From a virus: DNA of 28,953 nucleotides. Under the pieces are notes generated by a model. It made no database searches, had not been told where the DNA came from, and was given only the letters and a program-made list of their open reading frames with translations. Each line of letters opens with the position of its first letter. Position 1 is the stretch's first letter. The stretch spans positions 1 through 28,953 of IMG/VR virus record IMGVR_UViG_3300044618_001123. One strand, written 5' to 3'. The position numbers were made by a program, and so were the translations under genes. Positions 2,814 to 26,085 of this stretch are shown here, in pieces.

Positions 2814-3488
2814 ATGGCACGATTCTTAAAAACCTCCGACTATCTTAGCATTATTCAAACGGTTGACCTCAATCAGATAACCGAGAACACCCCGCAAAAT
2901 TTGTACGATAGCGAGGTTAAGGCCATAAGTAGAATGCGCACTAAATTGGTGCAGCGTTACATGGTTGACATTGAATTAGGCACAATGGATGCCTATTCAG
3001 CAGCAACACATTACAGAACACGCGACAGAGTGCTATTAGGCGAAGTAATTACACACGTTAATGACTTTAGCAGATGGGATAACAAAACTGAATACGTTAT
3101 TGGCAACATTGTAACAGATGAAAATGGCTATGTTTACACAGCAATTGCAGCAAGCACAAACCAACCTTTGACATTAACTGCATACTGGTCTAAAATGATT
3201 AACATTGCAACAAGCAACGCAACCTATTGGACTGTTGGTGATAATCGTTACCCGATGTTTGTGGAGCTTGCAATGGATATGACCCTATACAACCTACACG
3301 CAAGGATTAACCCAAGAAATATACCCGATTTGAGAATAGAACGCAACAGAGAAGCATTAGACCAGTTAGACAGATGGGCAAGCGGCACAGATACGGCAGA
3401 GGTGTTAAACATCAATTCAACCGATAGCACTGGTTATTCTATTCGCTACGGAAATAGTTTAGACAAACAAGATAATTTCTTTAAATAA
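2814..3488 (+). CDS. Mu gp36-like head adaptor with inserted CBM5/12-like module
   Basis: The outer parts resemble the DUF1320/Mu gp36 head-tail connector family. The N-terminus reads like FLKTSDYLSIIQ, and the C-terminal helix holds MTLYNLHARINPRNIPDLR. Between them (about residues 88-128) lies a WDNKTEYVIGN...GYVYTA...YWSKM segment. Its W/Y spacing is that of carbohydrate-binding modules of the CBM5/12 type. At 224 residues it is longer than the usual ~140-residue adaptor, as expected for an insertion. It would sit under the portal; the module would face outward. It ends one base into the next gene (TAATG overlap). The adaptor call is good; sugar binding is inferred. Confidence 0.7.
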   Translation: MARFLKTSDYLSIIQTVDLNQITENTPQNLYDSEVKAISRMRTKLVQRYMVDIELGTMDAYSAATHYRTRDRVLLGEVITHVNDFSRWDNKTEYVIGNIVTDENGYVYTAIAASTNQPLTLTAYWSKMINIATSNATYWTVGDNRYPMFVELAMDMTLYNLHARINPRNIPDLRIERNREALDQLDRWASGTDTAEVLNINSTDSTGYSIRYGNSLDKQDNFFK

Positions 3489-4723
3489 TGGCTTGGTATA
3501 ACGATATATTTAACTTTAACAAACCACAACCGCAAAAGGCTAACATACGTAAAACTATTGACTTTGAGCAACAGTTACAACGTGTAAGGCAAGATGCGAC
3601 AAAGTTTAACATTGCGTTACAAGCGGCAGAAAGCCCGATGTACCCAAACCGCTTCTTGTTGATGCAAACCTACCAGCAGATTGTGTTAGATGGGCAGGTG
3701 CAATCAGCAATGTTGCAGCGTAAATCAAAGATATTGAGCAAGAAGTTTATGGTTTATGGCCCGGATGGCGAATGTGATGAATCTAAAACTGCATTGTTTA
3801 ACCAAAAATGGTTTTATGACTTTCAAAGTTTATCATTAGATTCAATCTTTTGGGGTTTTAGTTGTGTGCAATTTGGCGCAATAATAAACGATAAGTATTC
3901 AAGTGTTGAGCTTATACCGCGCATTTATGTAGTGCCTGAATTTAGTTTAGTGCGCACCAACACAGCAACGGTAACAGAGGGCAAACATTTCGATGTGTCA
4001 CCATACAACAACTGGTGTATAGGTGTAGGTGAAAAAAAGGATTTAGGATTAATGATGTATTTAGCGCCATACGTTATTTGGAAGAAAAACGCAATGGCAG
4101 CGTGGGCTGAATTTGCTGAAGTGTTTGGCAGTCCAATTAGAGTTGGCAAAACAGATGTGCGCGATGAATTAACACGCAAAAACATGGAGAATATGCTACG
4201 CAATATGGGTGTAGCATCGTGGGCTGTGTTGGATTTAAACGACAACATTGAGTTGATGCAAGCAAGCAGAACCGATGCCTATGCAGTATTTGATAAAATG
4301 GTGGAGCGTTGCAATAGCGAAATAAGTAAAATCATTTTAGGGCAAACAGGCACAACCGATGAAAAGTCTTATAGTGGTTCGGCTAATGTACACGAAAGTG
4401 TTGCTGCTATGATTGCAAAGCAAGACACGTTGAAAATGCAGTTTATCATTGAAGACCAATTAGTGCCAATGATGATTCGCAATGGTTTTGACTTAACAGG
4501 TTGCACATTTAAGTATGATGACAGTGAGAATCTGCCATTGATGGAGCAAGCAAAGATAGATGCTTCATTTATGCCATACGTAAAGTTTGAACACGAATAT
4601 TTAGAGCATAAATACGGAATCGAATTGCAGGATGAAATGGGTATGGAGGAAGAAGTAATCGAAACCGAGAATGAAGTAGAATTAACCAACATTGCAAAAC
4701 GATTAAGAAACATTTATAGTTAA
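3488..4723 (+). CDS. Portal protein, DUF935 (Mu gp29-like)
   Basis: This is the dodecameric channel at the head vertex through which DNA enters and leaves. The sequence has the DUF935 look: an N-terminal region with MLQRKSKILSKKF, a central APYVIWKKNAMAAWAEF segment, and the hallmark ILGQT...SYSGSANVH followed by a helix EDQLVPMMIRNGF. At 411 residues it is slightly shorter than Mu gp29 but complete. Upstream is the adaptor and downstream is gpF, the same order of partners as in Mu-like heads. It joins the next gene with a one-base stop/start overlap. Confidence 0.9.
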   Translation: MAWYNDIFNFNKPQPQKANIRKTIDFEQQLQRVRQDATKFNIALQAAESPMYPNRFLLMQTYQQIVLDGQVQSAMLQRKSKILSKKFMVYGPDGECDESKTALFNQKWFYDFQSLSLDSIFWGFSCVQFGAIINDKYSSVELIPRIYVVPEFSLVRTNTATVTEGKHFDVSPYNNWCIGVGEKKDLGLMMYLAPYVIWKKNAMAAWAEFAEVFGSPIRVGKTDVRDELTRKNMENMLRNMGVASWAVLDLNDNIELMQASRTDAYAVFDKMVERCNSEISKIILGQTGTTDEKSYSGSANVHESVAAMIAKQDTLKMQFIIEDQLVPMMIRNGFDLTGCTFKYDDSENLPLMEQAKIDASFMPYVKFEHEYLEHKYGIELQDEMGMEEEVIETENEVELTNIAKRLRNIYS

Positions 4724-6201
4724 TGTGCGGCTACTGCGACATATTGAACATTGACAAGGAGGTTGACCCACCAACACCGTTTGATGAAAACGATTTCAAT
4801 CGTATGTCGAATGATGTGTGGATTGGTGCGATTAATAACCAAGTGTTGCCAGAGGGAATTTATTTAAAGACCGCGAAATATTTAAGAGATGGAATTGATT
4901 TGACACCAGTGGTTGATGAAATATTAACTGCTGATTTAACCAATAACATCTACATATTTTCGGGTGCTAAAACATACCAACAAACAAGGGCAATGACTGC
5001 AATGTTGGCAGACCCCGAATTGCAATCAAACTTCTATAAGTTTAAAGAGGCAGTTAAGCCGATGTTTACGCTATACAACGAAGACTATTTGCAAGCCGAA
5101 TATCAAACTGCTAAAGCTTCAGCACGTATGGCCTCCGATTGGAAGCGTATTGAAGCAGATGCCGATGTATTGCCGTTGTTGCAATATCAAACCGTTGGAG
5201 ATGGCAGAGTAAGACCAACACACGCGGCATTAGATAACATCATTCGCCCTATAAGCGATCCCTTTTGGAAACAATACTATCCACCTAATGGATGGCGTTG
5301 CCGTTGTACCGTAATACAATTGGCACAGGGGGAAGAAACTGATTTGAGTAAGTTTACACCGCCCGAAGATGTGCCGCCATTGTTTCGTATGAACGCTGGC
5401 ATTGATGGCTATGTGTTTAAAGAAAAGGGCAAAGACAAACACCCTTACTTTGACATTGCAAAAGGTGACAAAGAAATGGCTAAAAAGAATTGGAATTTAC
5501 CTATACCACAAGCACCAAGACCTGCGCCTGTTGTTGAAGTGCCGAAAGTGTTTAAGCCTGCTATGAGTGTTGATGAAGCTAAAACAAGAATTGAAAGTTT
5601 TAATATAAAAATAGATGCAAGTTCTATGAAAATAGAGCATTTAAATAAAACGCTTGAAGCGATTGAAACAGTACCATTAAACGCAAGACCAACATCAATA
5701 TTTGATAAAGCGGGATATGAAAAAAACTTCGGAAGGAAAATAGGCAGAAAGGCATCAGAGTTTCAAGGTATGGCATTGGAAACAGAAGTTTTTGATAAAA
5801 AAACAATGTCCTATAAATTTGAAAAAGTACTTGTAATAAATTCAAGAGAGTTTAAAACACCAACAGATATTACTGCAAGAAAAATAAAATACAATGAGTT
5901 TTATACTAAATTAAAAGATGGTAATAAATGGTACTTAAATGAATTTGATGGGTCAACACATTTTCATGAAATGGGGCATTTGTACGACAAAAATATTTCT
6001 ACAAAAAGAGAATGGATTGATATAACAAATAAATGGTTTAATGAAACCAAAGCAGATATGATTAAGGTTTCAAAAGGCGGTGATTTTAGGGGAGAAAATG
6101 GGTCGGAAGCATTTGCTGAAGCGTTTGCATCATACTTTGGGAACAACAAACAGAATTTACCAAGCTATGTAATTGATTACTTTGAAAAAAATATAAAATA
6201 A
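4723..6201 (+). CDS. Mu gpF-like minor head protein fused to an HExxH metallopeptidase-like domain (MuF toxin candidate)
   Basis: Residues ~60-200 are a Mu F-type minor head domain, with the signature DGRVRPTHAALD (160-171) and PPNGWRCRCTV (187-197). A Pro-rich linker follows (about 259-281), then a separate C-terminal domain. That domain has a zincin motif HEMGH (415-419) with catalytic Glu416, and SEAFAEAFASYF (461-472), which offers Glu462 or Glu466 as third zinc ligand. The tail region is visibly more AT- and Lys-rich than the F part. This is the layout of MuF polymorphic toxins, in which a virion-borne head protein carries a C-terminal effector. Alternatively the peptidase could act in head maturation or on the host envelope. 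A 59-residue Cys protein overlaps its stop. The F domain is certain; a toxic role is inferred. Confidence 0.85.
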   Translation: MCGYCDILNIDKEVDPPTPFDENDFNRMSNDVWIGAINNQVLPEGIYLKTAKYLRDGIDLTPVVDEILTADLTNNIYIFSGAKTYQQTRAMTAMLADPELQSNFYKFKEAVKPMFTLYNEDYLQAEYQTAKASARMASDWKRIEADADVLPLLQYQTVGDGRVRPTHAALDNIIRPISDPFWKQYYPPNGWRCRCTVIQLAQGEETDLSKFTPPEDVPPLFRMNAGIDGYVFKEKGKDKHPYFDIAKGDKEMAKKNWNLPIPQAPRPAPVVEVPKVFKPAMSVDEAKTRIESFNIKIDASSMKIEHLNKTLEAIETVPLNARPTSIFDKAGYEKNFGRKIGRKASEFQGMALETEVFDKKTMSYKFEKVLVINSREFKTPTDITARKIKYNEFYTKLKDGNKWYLNEFDGSTHFHEMGHLYDKNISTKREWIDITNKWFNETKADMIKVSKGGDFRGENGSEAFAEAFASYFGNNKQNLPSYVIDYFEKNIK

Positions 6202-6380
6202 TGGAATTTGATTTACTTTGTATTCAATGCAAGCATTACAATAAAGAAAAAAATAATTGTAGTGCATTTCCCAATATAATACCGTATGAAATATACGCTG
6301 GTCCAAACGACCACTCCGAACCACTCCCAAATCAAGAAAATAACATTATCTTTGAACCGATAAATGAGCAAGTCCAATAA
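6201..6380 (+). CDS. 59-residue Cys-motif protein, possible immunity partner
   Basis: The ATG shares a base with the stop of the gpF fusion (TAATG), and the stop lies 17 bases inside the gpG gene, so it is embedded in the operon. The protein starts MEFDLLCIQCKHY, with a third Cys in NNCSAFPNIIPYEIYAG, then DHSEP and a C-terminal NNIIFEP. The pattern C-x2-C-K-H...C-x-A-F-P-x-x-I-P-x-E-I-x-x-G-x-x-D-H is one I know from small conserved bacterial proteins of unknown function. The Cys and His residues may bind metal. Position next to the zincin domain suggests an immunity or inhibitor protein; this is inference. Confidence 0.75.
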   Translation: MEFDLLCIQCKHYNKEKNNCSAFPNIIPYEIYAGPNDHSEPLPNQENNIIFEPINEQVQ

Positions 6381-6804
6381 ATTCGATTTAAAACAAGCAG
6401 AAAAGAAAGCGCGTAAAGCGATGGAAGCGGCTATTGTAGATGTTGGTAACACTGCAAAGGTGTTCTTTGTTGATTCGTTTAGGAAACAAGGTTTTGATGA
6501 CAAGAATGTGCAGAAGTGGAAACCGAGAAAGCGCACAACGTATAAAACTAAAGGCGGTAAAACAGTTGATGACACAACACGCGCAATATTAGTAAAGACT
6601 GGAGATTTAAGGCGGTCAATAATACGCAACCCTGCAAACAGAGCCGCGTTAACTATTAAGATTAGCACTGATTTGGTTTATGCTGCGCGACATAACAATG
6701 GTTTAAAAAAAATGCCCAAGCGTCAATTTATGGGCGATTCTTACAACCTTAATGAGAAAGTAAAAGCAGTTATTGTTAAACGATTAGATAAAGTATTTAC
6801 ATAA
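6364..6804 (+). CDS. Virion morphogenesis protein, Mu gpG-like
   Basis: This 146-residue protein matches the phage virion morphogenesis (tail completion, gpG) family. It has a basic N-terminal helix, a WKPRKRTTYKTKGGKTVDD segment, then ILVKTGDLRRSI and DLVYAARHNNGL. It ends with MPKRQFMG, the (R)QF(M/L)G signature near the C-terminus. It works at the head-tail interface, probably as neck or tail-completion protein. It overlaps the Cys protein upstream by 17 bases and the next gene by one base. Confidence 0.85.
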   Translation: MSKSNKFDLKQAEKKARKAMEAAIVDVGNTAKVFFVDSFRKQGFDDKNVQKWKPRKRTTYKTKGGKTVDDTTRAILVKTGDLRRSIIRNPANRAALTIKISTDLVYAARHNNGLKKMPKRQFMGDSYNLNEKVKAVIVKRLDKVFT

Positions 6805-10235: not shown

Positions 10236-11345
10236 ATGAAAATTACGAACATATCCAACGAGGTTGCCACAATGCTTATCTATAAGCATATCGGCAATAT
10301 TGATGGTATGGATAATGGCATTAACGGTGCTTTTATTGCGGAGGATATTCAAATGCTTAACGATAGTTATTCGGATCAAGTTAAGTGCATCAATATACGT
10401 ATCAATTCGATTGGTGGAAGTGTTGCTGATGGGCTTTCAATTGTTAGTGCAATACTTAACAGTGCAATACCTGTAAACACATATATTGATGGCATGGCCT
10501 ATTCAATGGCTGGTGTTATTGCGATATGTGGCCAAAAGAAATACATGGCCGATTATGGCACGTTTATGATGCACAACGCTAACGGTGGAAGTGATGAAGA
10601 AGTGTTGAATTTAATTACAAATAGTTTAGCAAAAATATTTGAACGCAATACAAATCTAACATTAGACAAGTGCAAAGATTTGATGGCAAAAGAAACGTGG
10701 ATGACTGCCGAAGAATGTATGAGTTTAGGCATAGTTGATGAAATTATAGAAACAAAGAAAATGAAGCCTGCAATGAACGCAACTGTGCGCGAACTGCATG
10801 CTATCTACAATAAAGTAATAATTAAAACAGAAACCAAAATGAATAAATTAACTGATTTATTAAAGCTATCAAATGAGGCTTCAGAAGAATCAATCGTTGA
10901 AGCGGTTAACGCTAAAGATGCAAAGATTGCTGAATTAGAAGCAAGCATCGAAGCACAAAGCAACGAATTACAAGCGTTAAAAGATGCTAACAACGAAGCC
11001 GTACAAGCAGCAAAAGTTGAACTTATTGAAAACGCAATAAAAGAGGGTAAAATTGCTGATGCAAGTAAAGAAATTTATTTGACTTCTAACAAGTCTAATG
11101 ATGAATTAAAAGATGTGTTTAGCAAGCTTACACCTGCATACACACCTATCTTTGAAAACAAAGCAAACACACCAGCAGCAGTTGCAGGTCGTGAGTCTTG
11201 GACTTTCAACGATTGGTCAAAGAATGACCCAAAAGGTTTAGCAGAAATGAGAGTTAACGATGCAGCATCATTTGAGGCATTAATTAACAACTTGCCTGCT
11301 AATTTGTCACCAAACTACAACCCTACAACCGATAAAAAATTCTAA
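10236..11345 (+). CDS. ClpP-like head maturation protease with C-terminal scaffold
   Basis: Residues ~10-175 form a ClpP/S14-type serine protease: INSIGGSV (56-63), nucleophile Ser90 in GMAYSMAG, catalytic His113 in FMMHNANG, and the TAEECMSLGIVDEI end of the fold. From about 202 on there is a Glu/Lys/Ala-rich coiled-coil (KIAELEASIEAQSNELQAL) and a C-terminal segment, typical of a fused scaffolding domain. The enzyme would cut scaffold and head proteins during prohead maturation. An in-frame ATG at 10839 could give a separate ~168-residue scaffold, as in several phages. It lies directly upstream of the capsid genes. Confidence 0.88.
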   Translation: MKITNISNEVATMLIYKHIGNIDGMDNGINGAFIAEDIQMLNDSYSDQVKCINIRINSIGGSVADGLSIVSAILNSAIPVNTYIDGMAYSMAGVIAICGQKKYMADYGTFMMHNANGGSDEEVLNLITNSLAKIFERNTNLTLDKCKDLMAKETWMTAEECMSLGIVDEIIETKKMKPAMNATVRELHAIYNKVIIKTETKMNKLTDLLKLSNEASEESIVEAVNAKDAKIAELEASIEAQSNELQALKDANNEAVQAAKVELIENAIKEGKIADASKEIYLTSNKSNDELKDVFSKLTPAYTPIFENKANTPAAVAGRESWTFNDWSKNDPKGLAEMRVNDAASFEALINNLPANLSPNYNPTTDKKF

Positions 11346-24662: not shown

Positions 24663-25484
24663 TTAATCAGTGCAAAAACCTGCTTGACAACCGCTTCCAG
24701 TGCCAAAGTTAAAGTCGGTTTGCAATCCTATAGTTTTAATTTGTGCATAGGTAGCTTCTTTTTTCCAAGTAGCGTGTTTTTCTTGGTCTGAAAACCATTG
24801 CATCTTTTCGGTTTCCAAATCCCAATTTTTACGCAATTGTTGCAATGGCTTATGAAAACAACCAACGCAATTTGAATCAGATGGAAAAATTAAATTTGTT
24901 GAATCAGCCCATTTTTTTACTTGCAAATGAGTAACTTTATTTTCAATCAATGGAAAATAACCCTCCCTCCATTCTAACTCACCCCACTTATTTCTATTGC
25001 CATTTTTTGACTTTCCTATAATGCCCTTAAATGTAGTTGACAATCTGCTTGCTCGTTCCAATTCATCGTATCTGAAACCTATGCCCATTTTACACTTTTC
25101 ATTTATGTTTTTAAACCACCAATCAAATATAGGTCTCATCTTCATTTCAGTTGTGCAAAACCTCCAACTTTGGTTAGGTAAACCCTTACCGCCAGTACCT
25201 TGTTTATTTACTTTCTCAAATGTTTTTCCCGTAACCCAAACAATCTCTTTTCCTATTAATTGCTCCAAATCAATAACTGCTTTCAATGTCAAATCACTTT
25301 CAGCAGTTGCAATAAAATCCATACCTATTTTATCACTTACTTTTTGAACTAATGCTTTATCTTTTGGTGTGCATCTTATATCTTCAATTCTAACTAAACT
25401 AAAAATATTATAATCAGCAGGGTAATGGGCTGCTAAATAACTTGAGGTTTTACCTCCGCTTAAACTATTTATTGTTTTCATCAA
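24663..25484 (-). CDS. PAPS reductase/PP-loop ATPase family protein
   Basis: This 273-residue protein opens with the PP-loop SGGKTSSY (residues 9-16) of the adenine nucleotide alpha-hydrolase/PAPS reductase group. It also has a Cys-rich set: RFCTTEMK (C110), NCVGC (C206, C209) and GCQAGFC (C266, C271). These could bind a metal or iron-sulfur cluster. The family includes sulfate assimilation enzymes, tRNA thiolation enzymes and DndC-like DNA phosphorothioation enzymes. Here it lies in a phage lysis operon with no cysteine biosynthesis genes, so nucleic acid thiolation or a nucleotide-based defence or anti-defence role is more likely. No Dnd partner is seen. Confidence 0.75.
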   Translation of the reverse strand: MMKTINSLSGGKTSSYLAAHYPADYNIFSLVRIEDIRCTPKDKALVQKVSDKIGMDFIATAESDLTLKAVIDLEQLIGKEIVWVTGKTFEKVNKQGTGGKGLPNQSWRFCTTEMKMRPIFDWWFKNINEKCKMGIGFRYDELERASRLSTTFKGIIGKSKNGNRNKWGELEWREGYFPLIENKVTHLQVKKWADSTNLIFPSDSNCVGCFHKPLQQLRKNWDLETEKMQWFSDQEKHATWKKEATYAQIKTIGLQTDFNFGTGSGCQAGFCTD

Positions 25485-25666
25485 TTAATTATTGTCCACT
25501 CAAATTTACCCTTAATATTCCATTCCAACAAGGGCATAATCAAATCTATTTTATCTTTTCTCCTAAAGTAAACGTGGTCAATCTTTCGACCACCGATAAC
25601 AATGAAATCTATTTTGCTGAAAGTGATAACATCCTTGCCATTCGTGTAGCGTGTTCCTCTTGTCAT
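25481..25666 (-). CDS. Small hypothetical protein
   Basis: A 61-residue basic protein (MTRGTRYTNGKDVITFSKI) with a strand-rich middle (DFIVIGGRKIDHVYFRRKDK). It overlaps the endolysin stop (ATGA) upstream and the PP-loop gene downstream by four bases each, which argues for a real gene. No family is recognised. Confidence 0.55.
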   Translation of the reverse strand: MTRGTRYTNGKDVITFSKIDFIVIGGRKIDHVYFRRKDKIDLIMPLLEWNIKGKFEWTIIN

Positions 25667-26085
25667 ATTATGGTCATTTTCCAGTTGGTAAGCTCCACGT
25701 GGGGCATATCCTTAAACGATTTAAAATTGCCACCCCAAGTCAACTTATTGCTTACCGATTGCAGTAACTCCCAAAACTCTTTGAAATGTTTAGCAGAATA
25801 GTCAAGTTCACGTTTGCCAACCTTGACAAATGCTATGTCAAAGGCTCTTGATGGGTAATAATTATGCGGTGACTGATTTGCTCGGGCTTGGGTTATCTTC
25901 GGTCGCTTATGATAGTAAACTTCCTGCATTGCATTGTTTCTGTAAGTGCATACAATGATAACGTGAACATCGTTGTGAATAGCGTTAAACTGCGCTTCGG
26001 CTTTCTTATAAGCATTAGCAAGTGTTGGATGCAAGTCTTCGATTAATCTCGATTCGTATGGCTTGGTTTCATCTTTTGGTTTCAT
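25663..26085 (-). CDS. Endolysin, M15 peptidase (L-Ala-D-Glu peptidase type)
   Basis: This 140-residue protein carries the M15C pattern in order: a TYRNNAMQEVYY segment (47-58), SPHNYYPSRAFDIAF with zinc ligands His74 and Asp83, and WGGNF (117-121) followed by DMPHVEL with Asp126 and zinc ligand His129. It cleaves cell-wall peptide crosslinks at lysis. There is no signal peptide or cell-wall binding domain, so it needs a holin. It joins the upstream gene by ATGA and sits in the leftward lysis operon. Confidence 0.85.
   Translation of the reverse strand: MKPKDETKPYESRLIEDLHPTLANAYKKAEAQFNAIHNDVHVIIVCTYRNNAMQEVYYHKRPKITQARANQSPHNYYPSRAFDIAFVKVGKRELDYSAKHFKEFWELLQSVSNKLTWGGNFKSFKDMPHVELTNWKMTII

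What the first reader, a model, noticed from the sequence alone, without database searches (positions are those of the whole stretch)
4723..6201. Head protein carrying a C-terminal zincin domain: a likely MuF polymorphic toxin
Seen: a Mu gpF domain, a Pro-rich linker, then a domain with HEMGH (415-419) and a downstream SEAFAEAFA that can supply the third zinc ligand. The DNA for that part, from about 5580 on, is richer in A/T and Lys codons than the F part, as if added later. Known: temperate phages can carry MuF polymorphic toxins, in which an F-type head protein is fused to a variable effector with an immunity gene next to it. Inference: this virion may deliver a peptidase effector into the next host, or the enzyme may process envelope proteins.
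Basis: partly seen in the sequence, partly recalled or inferred. Interest (0 to 1): 0.8.

Follow-up and report, generated by a model that had tools for sequence, protein, structure and literature searches.

The report
Swappable phage-head protease with partner gene
A phage head protein carries a bolt-on zinc protease that many related phages lack or swap for another enzyme, and a tiny gene overlapping its end looks like the matching safety catch; the surprise is that these phages show no sign of the lysogenic lifestyle with which such toxins have been linked.

Summary
The protein at 4723-6201 is a Mu gpF head protein (PF04233) with an added C-terminal zincin: HEMGH at 415-419 and Glu462 are invariant in 14 aligned domains, ten of them 17-21% identical, and the model's best matches are M34 peptidases. 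In relatives the F part is conserved while the C-terminus is absent (88 of 138 loci), another zincin class, or an ADP-ribosyltransferase.

A 59-codon ORF (6201-6380), overlapping the stop codon, encodes a CxxC..C..H protein (phrog_33375). It follows 18 of 27 HExxH-type MuF genes and 0 of 88 short ones; the other nine, of two other zincin classes, carry two other coupled small ORFs. In the 6.9 kb compared, isolates lotta8-2 and pippi8-1 differ by just such a cassette.

'Temperate' is not supported: integrase, resolvase and rve models match 0 of 17 records, and lotta/pippi are reported as lytic only. Best reading: a packaged, injected peptidase effector plus a small protein that restrains it in the producing cell, used here for takeover or counter-defence. 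Toxicity, injection and inhibition are inferred. A new variant of MuF polymorphic toxins.

The parts
3488..4723 (+). Mu-type portal gene, directly upstream of the MuF gene
   Evidence: PF06074 Portal_Mu E 7.5e-70
4723..5508 (+). MuF head-protein part, residues 1-262: the constant part in relatives, many of which stop at about residue 263
   Evidence: PF04233 103-198; 88 short loci of 138
5509..5568 (+). Pro-rich linker, residues 263-282; some relatives carry only a Pro-rich tail here
5569..6198 (+). C-terminal zincin domain, residues 283-492
   Evidence: PF07737 weak, below cut-off; alignments A5 and A6; AF2 model pLDDT 64.7; VIA-align Z 7.0 to M34 peptidases
5965..5979 (+). HEMGH codons (residues 415-419): two zinc ligands and the catalytic Glu, by homology
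   Evidence: invariant H-E-x-x-H in A6; position
6103..6129 (+). SEAFAEAFA (residues 461-469); Glu462 is the probable third zinc ligand
   Evidence: E180 and E184 of A6, invariant in 14 of 14
6201..6380 (+). 59-aa partner gene, start overlapping the MuF stop (TAATG); CxxC..CxAF..IP..I..xN[DN]H protein, candidate inhibitor or immunity protein
   Evidence: phrog_33375 E 2.7e-7, unknown function, no Pfam or NCBIfam match; alignment A3; associations
5508..6355 (+). extent of the swappable cassette (linker, zincin, nearly all of the partner gene) against CTD-less relatives L017 and L018
   Evidence: blastn breakpoints
6364..6804 (+). Phage_tail_S / neck gene that follows; overlaps the partner gene by 17 nt
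   Evidence: PF05069 E 8.7e-6

Best explanation
The locus is a MuF-delivered effector cassette. SHOWN by sequence: a constant head-protein part is fused to an exchangeable M34-like zincin with intact, conserved active-site residues, followed by an overlapping small gene whose family goes with the zincin class. INFERRED: the protein is built into the head beside the portal, leaves with the DNA on infection and cuts one or more host proteins at the start of infection. While it is being made in the infected cell, the small coupled C3H protein binds and silences it, so that host and phage proteins are not destroyed before packaging; the effector enters the next cell without it. Because no lysogeny genes were found in this group, the most likely benefit is host takeover or counter-defence with rapid turnover of cassettes, rather than a lysogeny decision or lysogen warfare.
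For: Constant N-part with swapped C-termini. HExxH, Glu462 and Glu466 invariant in 14 of 14 CTDs, ten of them 17-21% identical to the window; of 50 rows listed in the structural second look, rows 1-42 (Z 4.8-7.0) are anthrax-toxin chains or PPEP/Zmp1. Partner: of 138 loci, C3H gene after 18 of 27 HExxH MuF genes and 0 of 88 short ones (0 of 1 more with little DNA downstream); all 6 contigs found with the window's own zincin class have it. The 9 other HExxH loci carry two other small ORFs that go with zincin class, starting -11 to +5 nt from the MuF stop. Converse: 38 of 42 distinct proteins upstream of the C3H gene have HExxH in the last 130 aa, against 2 of 112 other open frames of 200 aa or more (both strands, not all of them genes); 28 of 37 scanned have PF04233. 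Partner divergence follows CTD more than MuF divergence: Mantel r 0.70 against 0.50, partial 0.59 against 0.21, Spearman 0.36 against 0.21, n = 29. lotta8-2 and pippi8-1 are 99.2% and 99.8% identical on either side of an exchanged CTD plus small gene. No integrase, resolvase or rve in 17 records (positive control). Precedent: Bxa, a MuF ADP-ribosyltransferase, is antibacterial and neutralised by two neighbouring small proteins (PMC11699363, abstract and passages).
Against: No activity, injection or binding was tested. The C3H family is not tied strictly to HExxH zincins: L105 follows an ART-type MuF, L131 an HExxxH protein, and L130, L133 and L144 JAMM-like motifs (read by eye, motif recalled); stand-alone chromosomal copies without a visible effector are common. 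Its signature is strongly conserved, unlike typical immunity proteins (recalled). Window and L004 CTDs are 99.5% identical but their partners only 76%, so partner and CTD did not move together there. The two ART CTDs of this phage group have no partner gene in between. The CTD model is of middling confidence (pLDDT 64.7), Foldseek E is 0.028 at best with none at 0.001 or below, and PF07737 stays below its cut-off. Lysogeny genes may lie outside the 28,953-base fragment or be of types not searched, and the related family Winoviridae has members with integrase or MuA (PMC8776804, passages).
Confidence: 0.55

Rival explanations
1. A classical MuF polymorphic toxin of a temperate phage: the peptidase poisons competitors or steers lysogeny, and the small gene is the immunity protein that protects lysogens.
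For: Architecture matches Jamet 2017: MuF next to the portal, 20% of 191 MuF toxins with metallopeptidase domains, 89.4% followed by a small ORF (PMC5576092, passages). Peternella (Winoviridae) has an rve match and a reported MuA transposase, and some environmental Winoviridae have integrases (PMC8776804, passages). L134, in a Bacteroidetes MAG, has a MuF-like part (by eye), zincin and C3H partner.
Against: 0 of 17 records examined have integrase, resolvase or rve; HTH_3 matches 2 of 18 records and reaches its cut-off in 1, neither of them the window's close relatives; lotta/pippi reported as lytic only.
Confidence: 0.2
2. The small C3H protein is not an inhibitor but a maturation factor: a zinc carrier, folding helper or loading chaperone for metallo-effectors.
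For: Invariant C-C-C and H suggest a metal site; the proteins next to it are mostly HExxH or JAMM-like; strong conservation of the signature; stand-alone chromosomal copies.
Against: Two other zincin classes use small ORFs without these Cys; L105 pairs it with an ART domain; start-stop overlap and class-specific pairing are the usual toxin-immunity layout (recalled).
Confidence: 0.2
3. The zincin is a virion-assembly or DNA-ejection protease with no host target.
For: It is fused to a head protein next to the portal.
Against: 88 of 138 loci with a related MuF part lack it, two close relatives have ART-type domains instead, and a separate Clp-type head-maturation protease is present at 10236-11345.
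Confidence: 0.05
4. The enzyme processes envelope proteins, as the first reader suggested as an alternative.
For: None found.
Against: No signal peptide or wall-binding part was seen in the translation (by eye, no predictor run).
Confidence: 0.02

Closest known systems
MuF polymorphic toxins of temperate phages (Jamet et al. 2017, PMC5576092)
   Same: PF04233 head part after the portal, variable C-terminal enzyme, small ORF downstream; metallopeptidase toxins already reported in this family
   Different: No lysogeny genes found in this group, whereas Jamet et al. found no known toxin domain in MuF proteins of virulent phages (their test of the toxin-temperate link gave p = 0.055); here the small ORF is resolved into three kinds that go with zincin class
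Bxa with Bsi and BAH, and Apk2 (PMC11699363)
   Same: MuF fusion effector with adjacent neutralising proteins; Bxa is in a Bacteroides prophage
   Different: Different chemistry (ADP-ribosyltransferase, alarmone synthetase) and prophage setting; partner sequences were not compared here
Peptidase family M34 / ATLF fold (anthrax lethal factor catalytic domain, PPEP-1/Zmp1)
   Same: HExxH with a downstream Glu ligand; best structural matches
   Different: 12-19% identity in the aligned rows; PF07737 below its cut-off; fused to a phage head protein, substrate unknown
Polyvalent proteins and phage-borne zincin-like MPTases (PMC5512222); T4 Alt-type injected enzymes
   Same: Enzymes carried in the virion and proposed to act at the start of infection
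   Different: Often large multidomain proteins (abstract: 2 to 15 domains); here one exchangeable domain and a dedicated coupled partner

Membership tests
MuF polymorphic toxin | N-terminal MuF domain | tested here: met
   PF04233 E 1.9e-15
MuF polymorphic toxin | gene next to the portal gene in the packaging module | tested here: met
   portal 3488-4723, MuF start at 4723
MuF polymorphic toxin | C-terminal enzyme domain that varies among close relatives | tested here: met
MuF polymorphic toxin | small ORF directly downstream when an enzyme domain is present | tested here: met
   6201-6380; 27 of 27 HExxH loci; the 2 ART loci L011 and L012 have none
MuF polymorphic toxin | C-terminal domain toxic and neutralised by the small protein | not testable with these tools
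   needs expression assays
MuF polymorphic toxin | packaged in the virion and delivered to the host | not testable with these tools
   a MuF toxin was detected in StB12 phage proteomics according to PMC5576092 (passage); not tested for this phage
MuF polymorphic toxin | carried by temperate phages (reported association, not part of the architecture) | tested here: inconclusive
   0 of 17 records with PF00589, PF00239 or PF00665, against the association; but the window is a fragment and the completeness of the other virus records was not given
Peptidase M34 / PF07737 ATLF | score over the Pfam gathering cut-off | tested here: not met
   22.4 against 27.4 bits; so called M34-like, not filed as a member
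Peptidase M34 / PF07737 ATLF | HExxH plus downstream Glu ligand | tested here: met
   invariant in A6, 14 of 14
Peptidase M34 / PF07737 ATLF | fold | tested here: inconclusive
   Z 7.0, rmsd 5.0 over 147 residues to 1pwu_B; rows 1-42 of 50 are anthrax-toxin or PPEP chains, next row Z 3.2; model pLDDT 64.7
Peptidase M34 / PF07737 ATLF | zinc-dependent proteolysis | not testable with these tools
   needs an assay

The most novel reading that the evidence does not exclude
Strictly lytic phages of Bacteroidota keep a swappable arsenal of head-packaged proteases that are injected with the DNA to disable host defences, each produced together with its own tiny inhibitor that is left behind at packaging. 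MuF 'polymorphic toxins' would then be injected anti-host effectors in general, not tools of lysogeny or lysogen warfare, and the small genes, including a C3H family with no match in Pfam or NCBIfam, would be peptidase inhibitors specific to the zincin class.
Probability: 0.3. Interest if true: 0.8.

Novelty: new variant of a known kind. Interest (0 to 1): 0.6.

Why it matters
MuF metallopeptidase toxins are known from sequence, but the literature seen here ties MuF toxins to temperate phages, and the passages read name no partner family for the metallopeptidases. This locus and its relatives give a defined partner family for one set of zincins and two more for others, a ready-made natural swap in plaque-forming isolates (lotta8 and pippi8 on Flavobacterium LMO8), and a group without detected lysogeny genes, so that the role of injected MuF enzymes can be tested apart from lysogeny. 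If the partners are inhibitors, they are also a set of very small, class-specific zinc-peptidase inhibitors.

Tried and rejected
Searches that gave nothing or little: phmmer of the CTD against PDB sequences (best E 2); the CTD by tblastn in 50,697 phage records, E up to 1 (no match); fold search with the small-protein model (best E 9.6); Pfam and NCBIfam for the small protein. The genome-contig scan gave 3 loci. Mu-transpos_C matched nothing, not even the controls or Peternella, so says nothing. HTH_3 as a repressor marker matched 2 of 18 records, over its cut-off in 1. Brevibacillus phages Jenst and SecTim467 carry a C3H homologue; the annotated Jenst neighbours name no MuF gene, and a 'putative low copy number virion structural protein' two genes upstream was not examined. 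The pippi partner matched only pippi8-1 records in the phage collection.

Considered and rejected: an essential head protease (88 of 138 loci lack it); chance HExxH; the C3H protein as strictly a zincin immunity protein (L105, L130, L131, L133, L144 and orphan copies); the C3H gene as a structural gene (after 0 of 88 short MuF genes).

Rows left out: one search analysed 50 of the 54 loci; L082, L089, L091 and L008 were left out because their contigs had already been read (as L003, L007, L010 and L008). Three of the 50 had no upstream ORF by the script (L087, L090, L132), although L087 and L090 show zincin ends on reading. In one search, L079 had no MuF N-part, 15 loci ran off the contig and 3 were broken in the core. 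Identical MuF proteins were counted: 5 of the 18 C3H-positive and 16 of the 88 short loci repeat an earlier sequence, and L002 and L003 equal the window's protein. L078 was found through CTD patterns, so it was selected for having a CTD. One search scanned 37 of the 42 distinct upstream proteins. One search used 29 loci (upstream protein of at least 300 aa with HExxH, distinct C-terminus). One of the 20 genomes with a match is the centre, chosen because it has the gene.

Papers: only passages found by word search, or abstracts, were read (PMC5576092, PMC5512222, PMC3482391, PMC11699363, PMC7077304, PMC8776804, PMC10367356); PMC12226406 was seen in a search listing only. That metallopeptidase MuF partners or MuF enzymes of lytic phages are not in print rests on searches alone.

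Full report
CHECK. The ORF at 4723-6201 encodes 492 aa, with PF04233 at 103-198 and a sub-threshold PF07737 match at 411-476. HEMGH is at 415-419 and SEAFAEAFA at 461-469; the C-terminal part has 29.7% G+C against 41.3% for residues 1-262, and 12.9% Lys against 7.3%.

RELATIVES. A viral-contig search gave 79 loci; 77 of them hold all or part of residues 1-262 at 65-100% identity by the window's own query. What follows differs. Most of these genes stop near residue 263, with the tail-completion gene beginning within -16 to +4 nt; some add only a Pro-rich tail; others carry this zincin, other HExxH domains, or ADP-ribosyltransferase-type domains (L011, PF03496 E 3.4e-16; L012, weak PF18760, E 0.057). 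With two further MuF queries plus pippi8-1, 138 loci were classed: 88 short and one more with little DNA downstream, 27 HExxH, 3 other (two ART type, one intein), 3 broken in the core, 15 cut by the contig end, 1 without the N-part. So the C-terminus is an optional, exchangeable module.

ZINCIN. In an alignment of 14 CTDs (the window, three of the same class at 55-100% identity, and ten at 17-21%), His415, Glu416, His419, Glu462 and Glu466 are invariant. dN/dS in the CTD is 0.10-0.28 in the five pairs measured. An AlphaFold2 model from these 14 sequences (pLDDT 64.7, pTM 0.69) finds anthrax lethal factor first in Foldseek (E 0.028, probability 0.85; none at E 0.001 or below). In the second look, rows 1-42 of the 50 listed are all anthrax-toxin chains or PPEP/Zmp1 (Z 4.8-7.0), and the next row falls to Z 3.2. 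Z under 8 is not proof by itself; together with the conserved ligands it makes an M34-like zincin likely.

PARTNER GENE. A 59-aa ORF at 6201-6380 starts inside the MuF stop codon (TAATG) and overlaps the next gene by 17 nt. It was absent from the ORF list because of the 60-aa limit. It matches phrog_33375 (unknown function, E 2.7e-7) and nothing in Pfam or NCBIfam. In an alignment of 34 members, Cys7, Cys10, Cys20 and His38 are invariant, with AF..IP..I and N[DN]H, which suggests a metal site. In the census it follows 18 of 27 HExxH MuF genes and none of the 88 short or the 3 other genes. All 6 contigs found with the window's own zincin class have it. The 9 HExxH genes without it belong to two other zincin classes, each with its own small ORF starting -11 to +5 nt from the MuF stop: a 70-75 aa type (L166, L172-L176) and a 58-67 aa type (L055, L178, L179). 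In the other direction, 38 of 42 distinct proteins upstream of the C3H gene have HExxH within 130 aa of the end, against 2 of 112 other open frames of 200 aa or more, taken from both strands and not all of them genes; 28 of 37 scanned have PF04233. Across whole records the C3H gene is in 5 of 18, and in none of the short-MuF or pippi-class ones among them; one of the five matches contains a stop.

NATURAL EXCHANGE. The isolates lotta8-2 and pippi8-1 (Winoviridae, Pippivirus, both on Flavobacterium LMO8), compared over 6.9 kb, are 99.2% identical up to about MuF residue 275 and 99.8% identical from the tail-completion gene on; between lie different zincins and different small genes. Their genomes were not compared elsewhere. 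Against CTD-less L017 and L018 the window's insert runs from 5508 to 6355. Against L005 and L007, identity resumes at 6257, inside the small gene, so about the first 19 residues of the partner go with the CTD. Partner divergence follows CTD divergence better than MuF divergence (Mantel r 0.70 against 0.50; Spearman 0.36 against 0.21; CTD and MuF are themselves correlated, r 0.54). Against a strict pair: L004 has a 99.5% identical CTD with a 76% identical partner.

LIMITS OF THE IMMUNITY READING. One C3H gene follows an ART-type MuF (L105), one an HExxxH protein (L131), and three follow JAMM-like motifs (L130, L133, L144; read by eye, motif recalled). In 395 genomes of one phylum 20 had a match, the centre included; no HExxH protein was seen directly upstream in any of the 20 stretches held, and one (L144) showed a JAMM-like motif. 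L135 and L136 are copies in Bacteroidota assemblies without a MuF gene directly upstream. These could be captured immunity genes or a wider function of the family.

LIFESTYLE. PF00589, PF00239 and PF00665 match 0 of 17 records, including the window, lotta and pippi; PF00665 does match the related Peternella, where MuA was reported (PMC8776804, passages). The same passages report integrases in some environmental Winoviridae, so the wider family is not uniformly lytic. [quoted passage not shown] Jamet et al. 2017 found no known toxin domain in MuF proteins of virulent phages, although their test of the toxin-temperate link was not significant (p = 0.055) for small numbers (PMC5576092, passages), and a 2025 abstract still ties the family to temperate phages (PMC12226406, listing). 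This is the main departure from the described kind. The window is a 28,953-base fragment, so its own lifestyle is not settled.

MECHANISM. Shown: modular fusion, conserved active site, coupled class-specific small gene, exchange between near-identical phages. Inferred: packaging and injection (from MuF biology), proteolysis of host proteins, restraint by the small protein in the producing cell. Precedent for neutralising neighbours of a MuF enzyme is Bxa (PMC11699363, abstract and passages).

VERDICT. A new variant of a known kind, interest 0.6.

Noticed in passing
L071:5001-6821 and L134 (ORF ending just before 4001): Intein-like insertions inside the MuF domain near its conserved Cys motif, in two different phage groups (weak Intein_splicing match in L071, E 0.016; L134 read by eye).
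   Followed up: partly
L090, just upstream of 2989 and 2989-3162: Two tandem C3H partner genes behind a zincin MuF gene, reminiscent of poly-immunity loci.
   Followed up: no
L086:1-933: An in-frame stop separates the MuF part from the same zincin class as in the window; separate gene, decay or sequencing error.
   Followed up: no
L169:3765-4679: In Flavobacterium phage FPSV-S1 the slot after the short MuF gene holds a Dcm-type methylase instead: the slot may be a general cargo site.
   Followed up: no
L135:4001-4156 and L136:1425-1592: C3H genes in Bacteroidota assemblies without a MuF effector directly upstream.
   Followed up: partly
L074:5001-5791: MuF gene broken near residue 204, the rest lying in a second ORF.
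   Followed up: no
window 24663-25484 (-): PAPS-reductase-like gene (phrog_424, E 2.7e-22) near an endolysin-like gene at 25663-26085.
   Followed up: no
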